A stretch of DNA of 43,995 bases from Okeania sp. SIO3I5 (lineage in GTDB: Bacteria; Cyanobacteriota; Cyanobacteriia; Cyanobacteriales; Microcoleaceae): NCBI RefSeq assembly GCF_010672085.1, contig NZ_JAAHHT010000029.1, positions 42,722 to 86,716 on the forward strand, given 5' to 3'. The notes under the pieces were generated by a model. It searched no databases, was not told the DNA's origin, and saw only the letters and a list, made by a program, of their open reading frames with translations. A program made the translations under genes and the position numbers. Below, in pieces: positions 15,680 through 42,062 of the stretch (its first letter is position 1; every line of letters begins with the position of its first letter).

Positions 15680-15883
15680 ATGCCACAAAAAACTGGATTA
15701 GGAGACATCCTCAAACCCTTAAACTCAGAGTATGGTAAAGTATCTCCCGGTTGGGGAACTACACTATTAATGGCCGTTTTTATAGGCTTATTTTTTGTCT
15801 TCTTGTTAATTATTCTCCAAATCTACAACTCTTCCTTGTTGTTAGAAAATGTTGATGTAGATTGGGCCGGCCTAACTAAATAA
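15680..15883 (+). CDS. psbH: Photosystem II reaction centre protein PsbH
   Basis: A 67-residue protein beginning [20 protein letters not shown], followed by [20 protein letters not shown] as the start of its single membrane helix, and ending [14 protein letters not shown]. This is the PsbH pattern: a soluble N-terminus, the KVxPGWGTTxxM motif and one transmembrane segment. PsbH is a low-molecular-weight photosystem II subunit that helps stabilise electron flow on the acceptor side and bind bicarbonate. It is divergent from psbN and precedes tatA and pth. Confidence 0.97.
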
Positions 15884-16147: not shown

Positions 16148-16314
16148 GTAAGTATTTAGCTACTAGCAGTCAGCTAGGCGTGCTTTTTAATTAATGAAGC
16201 AAGCATTCACTTAATTTCTACTACTTTTTTAACTAGAAAATTGAAGTAAAAAAATGACGATTTAATTTGTCAATTAAAGGGAATAAAGCTGATAGCTGAT
16301 AGCTGAATGCTTAC
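16148..16314 (+). repeat. Family A inverted-repeat element, copy 3
   Basis: It begins gtaagtatttagctactagc and ends gctgatagctgaatgcttac, 167 bp long. Its right end lies 46 bp before the tatA GTG start. An ATG inside its right terminus (16307) is in frame with tatA and extends that reading frame artificially. Confidence 0.85.
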
Positions 16315-16345
16315 AACTGATTTATATAAATTTGAAGTAAATTTT

Positions 16346-16352
16346 GAGGAGG
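16346..16352 (+). promoter_or_regulatory. Ribosome binding site deciding the tatA start
   Basis: gaggagg ends 8 bases before the GTG at 16361, an ideal Shine-Dalgarno spacing. The upstream in-frame ATG at 16307 has no such site and lies in a mobile repeat. Confidence 0.8.
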
Positions 16353-16360
16353 AAAAAAAA

Positions 16361-16633
16361 GTGAATATATTTGGTATTGGTTTGCCAGAAATGATTGTAA
16401 TTTTGGTGGTAGCTCTTTTGATATTTGGTCCGAAGAAGTTGCCAGAAATTGGTCGGAGTTTAGGGCAGGCAATAAATAGTTTTAAAGCAGGAGCTAAAGA
16501 GTTTGAGAATGAATTTAAACGGGAAGCAAGCAAGTTAGAAGAAGGAGTGAAAGTTAGTACATACGAATCGGAATCAGAACCAGAAAAAGTAGTAAATGTT
16601 TCTTCTGCAACAGATACAAACCAGAAAAGCTAA
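16361..16633 (+). CDS. tatA: Twin-arginine translocase subunit TatA/E
   Basis: A 90-residue protein starting at GTG: (M)NIFGIGLPEMIVILVVALL, then IFGPKKLPEIGRSLGQAINS, then an amphipathic FKAGAKEFENEF helix and an acidic unstructured tail. One N-terminal membrane helix, the FGPKKLPEIGRSLG hinge and the amphipathic helix are diagnostic of TatA. TatA forms the pore of the twin-arginine export pathway in thylakoid and plasma membranes. The longer frame from ATG 16307 would add 18 residues encoded partly by a repeat and lacks a binding site, so the GTG start is preferred. TatA lying close to psbH and pth is a usual cyanobacterial order, here interrupted by an IscB element. Confidence 0.93.
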   Translation: MNIFGIGLPEMIVILVVALLIFGPKKLPEIGRSLGQAINSFKAGAKEFENEFKREASKLEEGVKVSTYESESEPEKVVNVSSATDTNQKS

Positions 16634-16859
16634 TTGGGAAGTTAAACTAGATAAAAAATTAACTGTAAGTATTCCGTGGTTAGAAAGCATCTTACAGAGA
16701 AACTGCCTTATTAGGTATTAGGTTTATTGTATTTAAAGGAGGAATTACCATATTCCTGATTTGAAAGAATTATCCTGATTTGAAAGAATTAAAAGTATGA
16801 ATAAAAGCCGAGCACTTAACCTTATACGATTTCTGTGTAACAATGCACTTAAATAATTA
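16634..16859. other. Spacer after tatA
   Basis: The only structure is a direct repeat of tcctgatttgaaagaatta at about 16754 and 16772. No gene was found. Confidence 0.35.
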
Positions 16860-17064
16860 TTACTAAAAAATCAGGTCTCTTGCTTCCCCCTTTTCAGAGG
16901 GTTAAAAAGCGGTCGTTAACGTTTGCAATAGCATTCCGTAAGGAAAGTTTACCGTAGGGTTAGATGGATGAATTAACTAACCATATCCAATCGACCAAGA
17001 GAAAATCAATTTTCTTATTTTAATCCGAATCCTTGACTTGGAGGTAATGATAACTGAAATGACC
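16860..17064 (+). repeat. Family B hairpin element (plus orientation)
   Basis: It begins ttactaaaaaatcaggtctc, with a hairpin around cttcccccttttcagagggt and aaaaagcggtcgttaac. The interior has gcattccgtaaggaaagttt and accatatccaatcgacca. It ends gaggtaatgataactgaaat, followed by gacc. It joins the left half of the 15130 type to the ctgataactgaaatgacc right end of the 25691 type. Confidence 0.75.
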
Positions 17065-17119
17065 AAGACCTGAATTTTGCTGATAACTATTATCTTTTAT
17101 TAAGTACAACTTCATGGAG

Positions 17120-17304
17120 AAATGGTATTAGCAGTATCTAGAACCACATCGACAATTTTCTGACTGTAAATTGTATGGGTTGACAACTCAAGCTTGTCGT
17201 TTTTATGCTTCAATTTATGGCTTGAAAATGTAGTATAAATTAAAGAAATACTTATTTCATTTATTAAAAAGCTGAGAGCTAACCGCTAATAGCTGAATGC
17301 TTAC
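17120..17304 (-). repeat. Family A inverted-repeat element, copy 4 (inverted)
   Basis: On the minus strand it reads gtaagcattcagctattagc from 17304, then gagttgtcaacccatacaat in the middle, matching copy 1 (3901-4193) through most of its length. The distal end is degenerate (ggtattagcagt at about 17123). It lies just upstream of the HEARO/omega-RNA. Confidence 0.75.
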
Positions 17305-17361
17305 AATTAACCTGAGCCAATCTAGAAGATTATTGTAGTTTTGATTTTAAAGGAAATGAAA

Positions 17362-17412
17362 GACTAACCACAAATCTAACCAAAACGCTTATTTGTGTTT
17401 AAATGGTTAGTC
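17362..17412. repeat. Inverted repeat at probable left boundary of IscB element
   Basis: gactaaccacaaat (17362-17375) pairs with atttgtg and ggttagtc (17390-17412, interrupted by ttaaat). Hairpins at element ends are typical of IS200/IS605-like transposons. The boundary itself is inferred. Confidence 0.45.
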
Positions 17413-17595
17413 CAGCCCACTTTTTTCAAGTAGACGTTATTTTAGTCACAATACGTCGGGATGCGTGGCCAGTTCCGACCCCTATTGTTCGGTATTAAAC
17501 AGGCAAAGAGATTTGAAAAGCTAGTGTGCCGAACCTCTCAAGCTTAAATAACCGGGCGAGGCCAACTTAACACTCTTTGTAGGAGGGACGCAACA
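17400..17595 (+). ncRNA. HEARO / IscB omega-RNA
   Basis: The approximately 190 bases before the iscB start are GC-richer than surroundings and carry the hallmark order of HEARO RNAs: gtggccagttccgaccccta, ggtattaaacaggcaaagag, gtgccgaacctctcaagctt, aaataaccgggcgaggccaa, then cttaacactctttgtaggag just before the ORF. Potential pairings include gacgt (17433) with acgtc (17453) and a multi-branched pseudoknot-like core around ggcgaggcc. In the family this RNA guides IscB, with the guide segment at the 5' end and the scaffold overlapping the ORF leader. The exact 5' end and guide are not determinable here; the guide would be expected at or upstream of about 17400. The ribosome binding site of iscB (aggagg, 17581-17586) lies in the RNA's 3' end. 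Confidence 0.85.
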
Positions 17596-18876
17596 ATGTC
17601 CAATTCAACCAATTATGTATTCGTACTAGACGCCAAGAAAAAACCCCTAGCACCGTGCCAACCAGCCATGGCGAGGTCATTGTTAAAAGCTGGCAAAGCC
17701 AAAGTTTTTAAGCGCTACCCATTCACAATAATTCTGAATAAATTGGTAGACGAAGAAAATCAGGGCTTGCAATTAAAAATTGACCCTGGTTCTAAACAAA
17801 CAGGCTTTGCAATGGTCACCCAAAGTGAAGAAGTTATCTTTGCAATGGTTCTAATCCATCGTGGCCAGCAAATTAAAAATGCGCTGCTGCGACGGCGAAC
17901 TCTTCGCCGAACTCGTCGTCACCGAAAAACTCGCTACCGTAAGTGCAGATTTCTCAACCGCAAACGAAAAAAAGGATGGCTGCCACCAAGTTTGAGGCAT
18001 CGGGTTTTGACTGTAGAAACCTGGGTTAATAGACTGTCTCAACTAAGTCCGGTAAGTAGTTTGGCTATAGAATTAGTCAAGTTTGACACCCAGAAAATAC
18101 AGAATCCTGAAATTTCAGGGGTTGAGTATCAACAAGGTGAACTATTTGGTTATGATGTCCGGGAGTATCTATTAGAGAAGTGGGGTCGCTCATGTGCTTA
18201 TTGTGGGGCAACAGATACGCCTTTAGAAGTTGAACATATCATTCCACGCTCAAAGGGTGGTAGTAATCGGGTGTCTAACTTAGCCATAGCTTGCCATCAA
18301 TGCAACCAAAATAAGGGTGCGATTGATATTCGGGAATTTCTTAAAGATCAACCGTCTGTACTAACTCACGTTCTTAAAGTTGCCAAAACGCCTTTAAAAG
18401 ATGCTGCTGCGGTTAACTCAACTCGCACATCTATTTTTGAAACCTTAAAAGTAAAAGGTTTGCCTGTGGTTACTGGTAGTGGTGCGGGTACTAAATATAA
18501 CCGTCGTCGATTGAATTTGCCAAAGGAACACTGGATAGATGCTGCTTGTATTGGTGAAGTTGAAAAGTTAACAATACTTACTAATCAACCCCTAGTCGTC
18601 ACAGCAATGGGACATGGCTGTCGACAAATGGTTCAAATGGATAAATACGGTTTTCCGAGGAAAGGTTACAAGGCCAAAAAACCTGTACCAGGCTGGAAAA
18701 CTGGGGATATTATCAATGTGGTCAAAGGCAGAAATGCTGGGTTAAAAGGAGTCAGGATTAAAACGGTGAGAAGCAAAGGCAACTTTGATATCCGACATGG
18801 GGATAAAATTTTGTCTGTATCTCGAAACCATATCCAACCTGTTCATAGACGAGATGGATACAATTACTCGTTTTAA
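17596..18876 (+). CDS. iscB: IscB RNA-guided HNH/RuvC nuclease
   Basis: A 426-residue protein of the family ancestral to Cas9. Domains in order: N-terminal PLMP-like domain (about 6-48, KPLAPCQPAMARSLLKAGKA with FKRYPFTI); RuvC-I KIDPGSKQTGF (Asp63); arginine-rich bridge helix LRRRTLRRTRRHRKTRYRK (98-116); RuvC-II LAIELVKFD (Glu159); HNH domain with CAYC (200-203), EVEHI (His214), SNLAIACHQCN and NKG (228-241); RuvC-III KEHWIDAACIG (His312, Asp315); and a C-terminal beta-rich PGWKTGDIINVVKGR domain (365-420). All catalytic residues appear present and there is no frameshift, so the nuclease is probably functional. It is preceded by its omega-RNA and separates tatA from pth, with its stop 36 bp before pth. 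No TnpA transposase is in the window, so mobility would need help in trans. Confidence 0.95.
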   Translation: MSNSTNYVFVLDAKKKPLAPCQPAMARSLLKAGKAKVFKRYPFTIILNKLVDEENQGLQLKIDPGSKQTGFAMVTQSEEVIFAMVLIHRGQQIKNALLRRRTLRRTRRHRKTRYRKCRFLNRKRKKGWLPPSLRHRVLTVETWVNRLSQLSPVSSLAIELVKFDTQKIQNPEISGVEYQQGELFGYDVREYLLEKWGRSCAYCGATDTPLEVEHIIPRSKGGSNRVSNLAIACHQCNQNKGAIDIREFLKDQPSVLTHVLKVAKTPLKDAAAVNSTRTSIFETLKVKGLPVVTGSGAGTKYNRRRLNLPKEHWIDAACIGEVEKLTILTNQPLVVTAMGHGCRQMVQMDKYGFPRKGYKAKKPVPGWKTGDIINVVKGRNAGLKGVRIKTVRSKGNFDIRHGDKILSVSRNHIQPVHRRDGYNYSF

Positions 18877-18912
18877 GTATATTTTTTCTAAGAGGTTGCG
18901 CCAGGAGCAAAC

Positions 18913-19530
18913 ATGGTGATTCCTAAATTAATTGTAGGTTTGGGAAATCCAGAGCCAAAATATAATCAAACTAGGCATAATATAGGATTTGCTGGAATAG
19001 ATACTTTAGCTAATAACTGGCAGGTTTCTTTATCTGAAAATCGTAAGTTTAAAGCGGAATTTGGAGAAAGTAGAGGAGTAAAAGCAGACAAAATTTACTT
19101 GCTTAAACCCTTAACTTATATGAATAAATCGGGAGAAGCAATTCGTGCAGTCGTAGATTGGTATAAATTACCACCTTCTTCCGTGCTGATAATATATGAT
19201 GATATGGATTTACCAATGGGACGACTGCGGTTACGGTTATCTGGATCGGCAGGTGGCCATAATGGCATGAAGTCGGCGATCGCTCATTTGGGAACCCAAG
19301 AGTTTCCTCGTTTGCGAATAGGTATTGGTAAACCCAAAAATGTTACTGCTGAAAGTGGAGACCCAAAAACTATTAGTCATGTTTTAGGAAAGTTTAGTCC
19401 CACAGAAAGCAAATTGATGACTCAAATGCTGGATCTAGTTGTAGAAACAGTAGAACTTTCTCTGAAACAAGGAATTGAAAAAGCGATGAGTCTCTATAAC
19501 AGTAAAACTATCATTTTACCAGAAGATTAA
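18913..19530 (+). CDS. pth: Peptidyl-tRNA hydrolase
   Basis: A 205-residue protein that releases peptides from stalled peptidyl-tRNA so the tRNA can be reused. Recognised by LIVGLGNPEPKYNQTRHNIG with catalytic His22, KPLTYMNKSGEA (65-76), IIYDDMDLPMGRLRLR (Asp96/97) and SAGGHNGMKSAIAHLGTQEF (about 112-131). The length is normal. The ATG at 18913 has aggag 5 bases upstream. The IscB element sits directly in front, so pth may rely on readthrough from iscB or on a promoter inside the element. A family of unknown function follows 99 bp downstream. Confidence 0.97.
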   Translation: MVIPKLIVGLGNPEPKYNQTRHNIGFAGIDTLANNWQVSLSENRKFKAEFGESRGVKADKIYLLKPLTYMNKSGEAIRAVVDWYKLPPSSVLIIYDDMDLPMGRLRLRLSGSAGGHNGMKSAIAHLGTQEFPRLRIGIGKPKNVTAESGDPKTISHVLGKFSPTESKLMTQMLDLVVETVELSLKQGIEKAMSLYNSKTIILPED

Positions 19531-40953: not shown

Positions 40954-41394
40954 ATGGCTATTGTTCGTTTTTCTCCCTGGCGTGAAATTGACTCTTTGCA
41001 AAAAGAAATGAATCATTTATTTGATACTTTGGCTCCGACTATGAATGGAGAAGAAAAAGGCATAGCATTTAAACCAGCAGCGGAAATGCAAGAAAACCAT
41101 GATGCGATTGATTTGAAACTGGAAATCCCTGGTTTAGAGGCGAAAGATTTAGATGTACAAGTGACTGCTGAAGCAGTAGCAATTAAAGGAGAGCGTCGTC
41201 AAGAAACTAAGATAGAATCACAAGGAATGACTCGTTCAGAATTTCGTTATGGTGGTTTCCAAAGAGTAATTTCTTTACCTGCGAGGGTTCAAAATGACCA
41301 AGTAAAAGCTGACTATAAAGATGGTATTTTACATCTACATTTGCCGAAATCTGAAGCTGAGAAAAATAAGGTTGTGAAAGTTAATGTCGGCTAA
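40954..41394 (+). CDS. Small heat-shock protein Hsp20 (copy 1)
   Basis: A 146-residue protein of the alpha-crystallin family: N-terminal MAIVRFSPWREIDSLQKEMN, then the alpha-crystallin domain (about 40-140: DAIDLKLEIPGLEAKDLDVQ, RSEFRYGGFQRVISLPARVQ, DYKDGILHLHLPKSE) and a C-terminal VVKVNVG in place of the usual IxI motif. Related to cyanobacterial HspA/Hsp17. It binds unfolded proteins and membranes under heat or light stress. The downstream copy differs at only seven residues (for example Asp24Glu, Lys40Thr, His127Tyr). The leader is conserved in both, so both are likely heat-induced. Confidence 0.95.
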   Translation: MAIVRFSPWREIDSLQKEMNHLFDTLAPTMNGEEKGIAFKPAAEMQENHDAIDLKLEIPGLEAKDLDVQVTAEAVAIKGERRQETKIESQGMTRSEFRYGGFQRVISLPARVQNDQVKADYKDGILHLHLPKSEAEKNKVVKVNVG

Positions 41395-41621: not shown

Positions 41622-42062
41622 ATGGCTATTGTTCGTTTCTCCCCCTGGCGTGAAATTGATTCTTTGCAAAAGGAAATGAATCATTTATTTGAGACTTTTG
41701 CTCCGACTATGAATGGAGAAGAAAAAGGCATAGCATTTACACCGGCGGCAGAAATGCAAGAAAACCATGATGCAATTGATTTGAAACTAGAAATTCCTGG
41801 TTTAGAGGCGAAAGATTTAGATGTACAAGTGACTGCTGAAGCAGTAGCAATTAAAGGAGAACGTCGTCAAGAAACTAAGACAGAATCACAAGGAATGACT
41901 CGTTCAGAATTTCGTTATGGTGGTTTCCAAAGAGTAATTTCTTTACCTGCGAGGGTTCAAAATGACCAAGTAAAAGCTGACTATAAAGATGGTATTTTAT
42001 ATCTACATTTGCCCAAAGCTGAAGCTGAGAAAAATAAAGTTGTGAAGGTCAATATTGGCTAA
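41622..42062 (+). CDS. Small heat-shock protein Hsp20 (copy 2)
   Basis: A 146-residue near-duplicate of the protein at 40954-41394, with about 95% identity and an identical alpha-crystallin domain layout. Substitutions are at positions such as 24 (Glu), 26 (Phe), 40 (Thr), 127 (Tyr), 132 (Ala) and 145 (Ile). It is a complete, in-frame gene with its own copy of the conserved leader and binding site. The duplicated unit is 668 bp. Most third-position differences are synonymous, so selection has kept both copies. Functional divergence between copies is not evident. Confidence 0.95.
   Translation: MAIVRFSPWREIDSLQKEMNHLFETFAPTMNGEEKGIAFTPAAEMQENHDAIDLKLEIPGLEAKDLDVQVTAEAVAIKGERRQETKTESQGMTRSEFRYGGFQRVISLPARVQNDQVKADYKDGILYLHLPKAEAEKNKVVKVNIG

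What the first reader, a model, noticed from the sequence alone, without database searches (positions are those of the whole stretch)
17360..18905. Apparently intact IscB nuclease with its HEARO/omega-RNA between tatA and pth
Sequence shows an uninterrupted 426-residue IscB with Asp63, Glu159, His312 and Asp315 (RuvC) and His214 (HNH), preceded by the ordered conserved blocks of a HEARO RNA that end at the ribosome binding site. Known biology: IscB is the RNA-guided ancestor of Cas9. No transposase gene is nearby, and pth starts only 36 bp after iscB, so the element may have become fixed and may influence pth expression. The guide segment is expected at or just upstream of about 17400.
Basis: partly seen in the sequence, partly recalled or inferred. 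Interest (0 to 1): 0.75.

Follow-up and report, generated by a model that had tools for sequence, protein, structure and literature searches.

The report
RNA-guided nuclease insertion beheading pth
A small mobile element that carries an RNA-guided DNA-cutting enzyme (an IscB, from the family that gave rise to Cas9) has landed two codons inside the gene for peptidyl-tRNA hydrolase in a cyanobacterium, and the gene now appears to begin at a different start codon; the element is of a known kind, but its ends, its likely target signal and what it did to the host gene can be read directly.

Summary
In detail: an uninterrupted 426-aa IscB (17596-18876) follows a full-length HEARO/omega-RNA (17362-17571, 94.7 bits). 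None of 29 relatives' pth loci carries the element within about 1.5 kb upstream. Their empty site, and those of two Okeania sister elements, give the ends: 17362-18891, 1530 bp. GAG follows the right end in 23 of 26 family copies, the likely TAM. The guide is host DNA just upstream of 17362, not near 17400. The original start (17356) now reads ATG-AAA-GAC-TAA, and the remaining start, ATG 18913, lies where relatives have Leu (28) or Val (1). (2) Of 24 family elements, this one included, 8 lie within 60 nt of a sense ORF start (3.5% expected) and 0 antisense. This was noticed after looking and replicates weakly (2 of 12 added rows). Fixation is not supported: iscB is closer to Okeania copies than pth is, which suggests recent exchange. 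New member of a known kind; cleavage, RNA and Pth start are untested.

The parts
17362..18891 (+). whole mobile element (1530 bp), GACTAACC...TTTTTTCTAA
   Evidence: Junctions against empty pth loci and empty sites of two sister elements; a 2-nt ambiguity (GA) at the ends remains
17346..17361 (+). predicted guide segment (16 nt taken; true length unknown), host-derived left flank with pth's old ribosome-binding region, start codon and second codon
   Evidence: Position relative to the HEARO model start and the known IscB layout; the 16-mer occurs once without mismatch in the own genome; inferred
17362..17571 (+). HEARO / omega-RNA scaffold
   Evidence: RF02033, 94.7 bits, model 1-211
17581..17586 (+). 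Shine-Dalgarno sequence of iscB (AGGAGG)
   Evidence: sequence
17596..18876 (+). iscB, 426 aa, RuvC and HNH residues intact
   Evidence: dN/dS 0.12-0.14 against three Okeania copies
18892..18894 (+). GAG right of the element: presumed TAM; third codon of the original pth
   Evidence: GAG in 17 of 19 and 23 of 26 (overlapping set) family right ends; in the 13 closest empty sites GAG 12, GAA 1
17356..17367 (+). original pth start codon, now ATG AAA GAC TAA (MKD stop)
18913..19530 (+). pth, first usable start now ATG 18913, 9 codons downstream of the original start
16307..16633 (+). tatA/E, left neighbour

Best explanation
A mobile element of the IscB/omega-RNA (OMEGA) kind, without its own transposase, inserted between codons 2 and 3 of pth (target ...ATGAAA|GAG...). 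Shown: ends, empty site, conserved GAG to the right, intact IscB and RNA, loss of the original pth start codon, and an ATG at a site where relatives have a Leu or Val codon. Inferred: a transcript starting in host DNA upstream of 17362 carries about 16 nt of host sequence as guide followed by the scaffold; IscB bound to it cuts DNA that has this sequence next to GAG, that is, the empty pth allele. The filled site is spared because GAC, not GAG, now follows the guide sequence. Cutting empty alleles, followed by repair from a filled copy, keeps or spreads the element. pth is translated from ATG 18913, perhaps from an iscB-pth transcript, since no terminator-like site was found between them. A Y1 transposase acting in trans is presumed to move it.
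For: Family and RNA; RF02033 above gathering in 4 of 6 further family loci. Empty sites: 0 of 29 relatives' pth loci match the element interior; 13 align from 18890 on, and 24 of 29 also match tatA (13 sequences). Sister empty sites: G018:C1 (...CCCAG + GAGCAATATA; the site lies in a repeat family) and G012:C75 (...TTCAGTA + GAGGTTATTGG). GAG. pth: in-frame ATG 8 to 12 codons upstream with no stop between in 29 of 29 relatives; codon at the window's ATG is Leu in 28, Val in 1. One pth match (E <= 1e-40) in the own genome. iscB dN/dS 0.07-0.15 in 6 pairs. No terminator-like site on + between iscB and pth. Ten Y1 transposase matches elsewhere in the genome.
Against: No transposase in the element, and the six Y1 loci examined share no ends with it, so the mover is unknown. 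Cleavage, RNA production, guide length and TAM are not measured. The predicted guide does not match the relatives' empty sites perfectly. The Shine-Dalgarno score of the new start (-6.6) lies within the range of the same column in relatives, and one of 29 is stronger. RF02033 did not reach gathering in 2 of 6 further family loci (L082, L083), and the RNAalifold covariation term on 13 RNAs was weak. The horizontal-exchange argument rests on one host gene, pth.
Confidence: 0.78

Rival explanations
1. Domesticated element: the block is fixed and kept by the host, for example as a regulator of pth.
For: Intact IscB under purifying selection in the family; directly upstream of pth in sense with no terminator-like site between.
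Against: Absent at this site in 29 of 29 relatives, all other species; iscB closer to Okeania copies than pth is; sister copies at other sites with different flanks.
Confidence: 0.08
2. Inert relic: an intact-looking copy that no longer makes RNA or cuts.
For: Many IscB fragments, several with stops, lie in the same genome; no transposase among the window ORFs scanned.
Against: Catalytic residues, full ORF, SD and a full-length RNA above gathering score are all present.
Confidence: 0.15
3. The ATG at 18913 existed before the insertion, so the insertion was tolerated from the first; no repair of a beheaded gene took place.
For: Order of events cannot be read from one genome; L051 has a comparable SD score at this column (-6.2) without the ATG.
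Against: None of 29 relatives has ATG there, but none is of the same species.
Confidence: 0.4
4. The upstream ATG in relatives is not the true start; they begin at the TTG codon or later, so nothing was lost.
For: TTG can start translation; the Pth domain models begin only at residues 5-6 of the window protein.
Against: 18 of 29 have TTA, not a usual start codon; an in-frame upstream ATG is kept in 29 of 29 without a stop between, at the same distance (-9) in all 13 closest.
Confidence: 0.05

Closest known systems
IscB / omega-RNA (OMEGA) elements of the IS200/IS605 superfamily; Rfam HEARO RF02033, NCBIfam NF040563
   Same: RuvC-HNH-RuvC nuclease with RRXRR region directly downstream of a HEARO RNA; guide side at the left end; target motif to the right. 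Lack of a nearby TnpA is usual: PMC9755519 (passages read) found only a few HEARO nucleases associated with TnpA
   Different: Inferred TAM GAG. PMC13180657 (passages read) gives NTAAA for OrufIscB and NWRGNA as the better TAM for engineered OgeuIscBs; GAGG, seen in 11 of 26 copies, fits the first four letters NWRG.
Okeania copies G018:C1, G023:C468, G012:C75
   Same: 91-94% identical IscB, same ends, GAG on the right; genus named through matching records and contig lengths
   Different: Other insertion sites; none at pth
IsrB nickases (DtIsrB, PMC9581776, passages read)
   Same: Related RNA-guided layout; DtIsrB has an NTGA TAM
   Different: IsrB lacks the HNH domain (recalled); this protein has it
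TnpB-driven retention or gene drive of IS200/IS605 (PMC11870625, abstract and outline read)
   Same: The guide records the insertion site and cuts the empty allele: the model used here
   Different: TnpB, not IscB; shown on plasmids

Membership tests
IscB | Curated family model above its cut-off | tested here: met
   NF040563 459.7 bits, cut-off 175
IscB | RuvC acidic/His residues and HNH domain | tested here: met
   D63, E159, H312, D315, H214; PF01844/PF14279
IscB | Associated omega-RNA (HEARO) directly 5' of the ORF | tested here: met
   RF02033 17362-17571, 94.7 bits
IscB | Guide taken from the host flank at the left end, TAM on the right flank | tested here: inconclusive
   Positions and conserved GAG agree; no RNA or cleavage data
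IscB | RNA-guided DNA cleavage | not testable with these tools
   No biochemistry
IS200/IS605 element | Y1 transposase (TnpA) in the element | tested here: not met
   The 1530-bp element holds iscB only; Y1 matches are elsewhere and six of their loci share no ends
IS200/IS605 element | Insertion without target duplication | tested here: met
   Flanks join to the empty site exactly, apart from a GA that can be assigned to either side
Cas9 / Cas9d | Score above family cut-off | tested here: not met
   NF049971 43.5 bits (cut-off 375); TIGR01865 23.5 (cut-off 100)
IsrB | Absence of the HNH domain (recalled criterion) | tested here: not met
   HNH present

The most novel reading that the evidence does not exclude
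This IscB family lives at the starts of host genes by design or by selection: its target motif GAG(G) resembles the Shine-Dalgarno core, it sits in sense just upstream of genes (pth, rnpA, fbp, a ferredoxin, ycf66, a GH3 enzyme), borrows the host gene's promoter to transcribe a host-derived guide, and thereby arms itself against the empty allele of a gene the cell may not be able to lose. At pth the insertion overshot the start codon and the host now uses another.
Probability: 0.3. Interest if true: 0.7.

Novelty: new member of a known kind. Interest (0 to 1): 0.5.

Why it matters
It gives a natural IscB element with both ends, its empty site and its inferred TAM read from comparison, so the retention model (guide = empty site, TAM split off by insertion) can be tested with real sequences. 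It also shows a single-copy translation gene that lost its start codon to a mobile element and apparently runs from another. If the start-proximal, sense-only placement is confirmed in more genomes, it would suggest how a guide that lies outside the element gets transcribed.

Tried and rejected
AlphaFold model from 12 sequences was poor (mean pLDDT 61.2, pTM 0.41) and was neither used nor searched. RNAalifold on 13 RNAs gave 31 pairs, 6 with a compensated change, and a weak covariation term; the Rfam covariance hit is the better evidence. Exact left end GACTAACCACAAATCTAA in viral contigs: 0 matches. The 4-nt AAGA shared by both window junctions looked like a target duplication; sister empty sites show that AA belongs to the element, leaving GA ambiguous. 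A 17-nt left-flank match at G012:C75 looked like a moved guide, but L161 aligns on both sides of a further insertion, so it was dropped. G023:C468 was not counted as a resolved empty site: two relatives (L153, L154) align from AAGAGG on the right, but not contiguously on the left. Papers not held: PMC8929163 and PMC4810608; what I know of them is recall. Searches for print on IscB, HEARO, placement, cyanobacteria and start codons; no title or abstract start in the rows listed dealt with this placement or with a pth start lost to such an element. The lists were capped and most subscription papers are not held, so this is weak evidence. PMC8400943 (one passage) sets HEARO RNAs of Limnospira aside as mobility remnants.

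Full report
Observation. The window is G000:C212:42722-86716 of a 10.5-Mb genome. The closest IscBs outside it are in records titled Okeania and Hydrocoleum, so the host is a cyanobacterium of that group. ORF 17596-18876 encodes a 426-aa IscB with the stated catalytic residues. A complete HEARO RNA lies at 17362-17571 (94.7 bits, gathering 83), followed by iscB's SD at 17581. tatA lies to the left and pth to the right.

Boundaries. pth was found in 59 of 59 genomes including the own; loci with about 1.5 kb of flank were returned for 30, of which 29 are relatives. None of the 29 matches the window between 17352 and 18889; 13 align from 18890 onwards, and 24 of the 29 also match tatA. The closest relatives read ...AATGAAA|GAGGTTGCGCC..., the window ...AAATGAAA|GACTAACC...TTTTTTCTAA|GAGGTTGCGCC. 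Two sister elements in Okeania resolve the same way: G018:C1 against L139/L140 (in a repeat family) and G012:C75 against L160. The element is thus 17362-18891, 1530 bp.

Target motif and guide. Across 19 right ends found by pattern the next triplet is GAG 17, GAA 1, AAG 1. Across 26 elements with both ends it is GAG 23, GAA 1, AAG 1, TAG 1, with GAGG in 11 (the sets overlap). GAG is present in the empty sites (of the 13 closest pth sites GAG 12, GAA 1), so its third base belongs to the target and not to the element. By the known IscB layout the guide is the host flank left of 17362. The 16-mer 17346-17361 occurs once without mismatch in the genome. In the filled site it is followed by GAC, not GAG.

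What happened to pth. In all 29 relatives the pth frame has an ATG 8 to 12 codons upstream of the column of the window's ATG, with no stop between. The script printed 21 at -9, 3 at -8, 1 at -11 and 4 at -12; L069's match starts at residue 2, so its ATG is really at -8, which makes 20 and 4. The codon in the column is TTA in 18 and TTG in 10; for L069 the script printed GTT, and the right codon is GTA, Val. None is ATG. In the window the old ATG at 17356 reads MKD-stop, and the pth frame has a stop immediately before GAG, so ATG 18913 is the first usable start. The SD score of the new start is -6.6 kcal/mol; the same column in relatives ranges from +1.0 to -7.0 and one of 29 is stronger, so the SD is no evidence of repair; the ATG is the difference. 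There is one pth match at E <= 1e-40 in the genome. That pth is essential in bacteria is recalled, not tested.

Age and spread. iscB of the window against Okeania G018, G023, G012: dS 0.26, 0.30, 0.36; pth of the same genomes: 0.61, 0.64, 0.55. Against two same-genus genomes (G002, G003) the order reverses: iscB 1.15 and 1.20, pth 0.38 and 0.33. This fits horizontal exchange of the element; pth is the only host gene compared. dN/dS of iscB is 0.07-0.15 in six pairs (the 0.07 pair has a saturated dS of 1.76).

The family in this genome. There are five full-length IscBs (100, 83, 53, 53, 52% identity) and many fragments, and 18 HEARO matches, five above the cut-off. Nine of the 18 (L034, L036, L037, L041-L045, L047) carry the same right end, or a close variant, without an iscB; they are 346-563 bp long. 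They look like internal-deletion derivatives that could use an IscB from elsewhere; this is inference.

Placement. After seeing the right flanks I counted how many elements lie within 60 nt of the start of a sense ORF of at least 120 aa. First set: 6 of 12 against 48 of 1600 random GAG sites. Extended set: 52 left ends matched the pattern in 14 genomes. I fetched 40 of them, leaving 12 unexamined (all of G001, G004, G005, G013 and one of G027), and added G023:C468, 41 in all. Fifteen had no recognised right end and 26 had both ends. One with 7 nt of right flank and one that shares its site with another were dropped, leaving 24, the window's included. Result: 8 of 24 sense, 0 antisense, 1 inside an ORF; control 83 of 2400 sense and 66 antisense. 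p is 9e-7, and 1.6e-4 among intergenic sites only (8 of 23 against 76 of 1030). Against this: the idea came from the same data; the elements not in the first set give 2 of 12 (p 0.06), and one of these two had already been seen; the control comes from the own genome only. An ORF minimum of 80, 150 or 200 aa gives 9, 7 and 5 of 24 sense and 0 antisense. Downstream proteins that match Pfam: GH3, RNase P protein, Ycf66, PG-binding, FBPase, ferredoxin (6 of 6 submitted), and Pth; the eighth, at C26, was not scanned.

Mechanism and verdict. The best-supported reading is an IscB/omega-RNA element held in place by cutting empty alleles. The general model is described for the related TnpB (PMC11870625, abstract and outline read). 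What is new here is the case: exact ends, GAG, and a translation gene that lost its start codon. It is a new member of a known kind. The start-proximal placement is the part that could matter most, and it needs an independent count.

Noticed in passing
window 16666-17304: About 640 bp between tatA and the element are missing from same-genus loci L050, L057 and L058 and consist of pieces that recur in the own genome (45 matches, one being itself). A second, repeat-rich insertion thus lies 57 nt upstream of the element.
   Followed up: partly
L034, L036, L037, L041, L042, L043, L044, L045, L047: Nine HEARO-only mini-elements (346-563 bp) with the right end of the full element or a close variant, and no IscB; possible guides in trans.
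   Followed up: partly
G018:C424 (L162, L179) and G012:C75 (L081): The same insertion site is filled in two Okeania genomes and empty in three others (L159, L160, L161); a case for testing retention.
   Followed up: no
G000:C115 (L269) and G002:C1137 (L264): A mini-element occupies the same site in two genomes of the genus, so some copies may be older than the window's.
   Followed up: no
window 15680-15883 and 15721-15781: A 67-aa ORF that looks like psbH (by eye) with an Rfam Plastid-psbN match on the opposite strand (51.1 bits, cut-off 50).
   Followed up: no
window 40954-41394 and 41622-42062: Two HSP20 genes of 146 aa in tandem.
   Followed up: no
own genome, e.g. L023, L028-L030: Many open frames of about 600 aa match only the HNH part of IscB; probably group II intron proteins (recalled type, not tested).
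   Followed up: no
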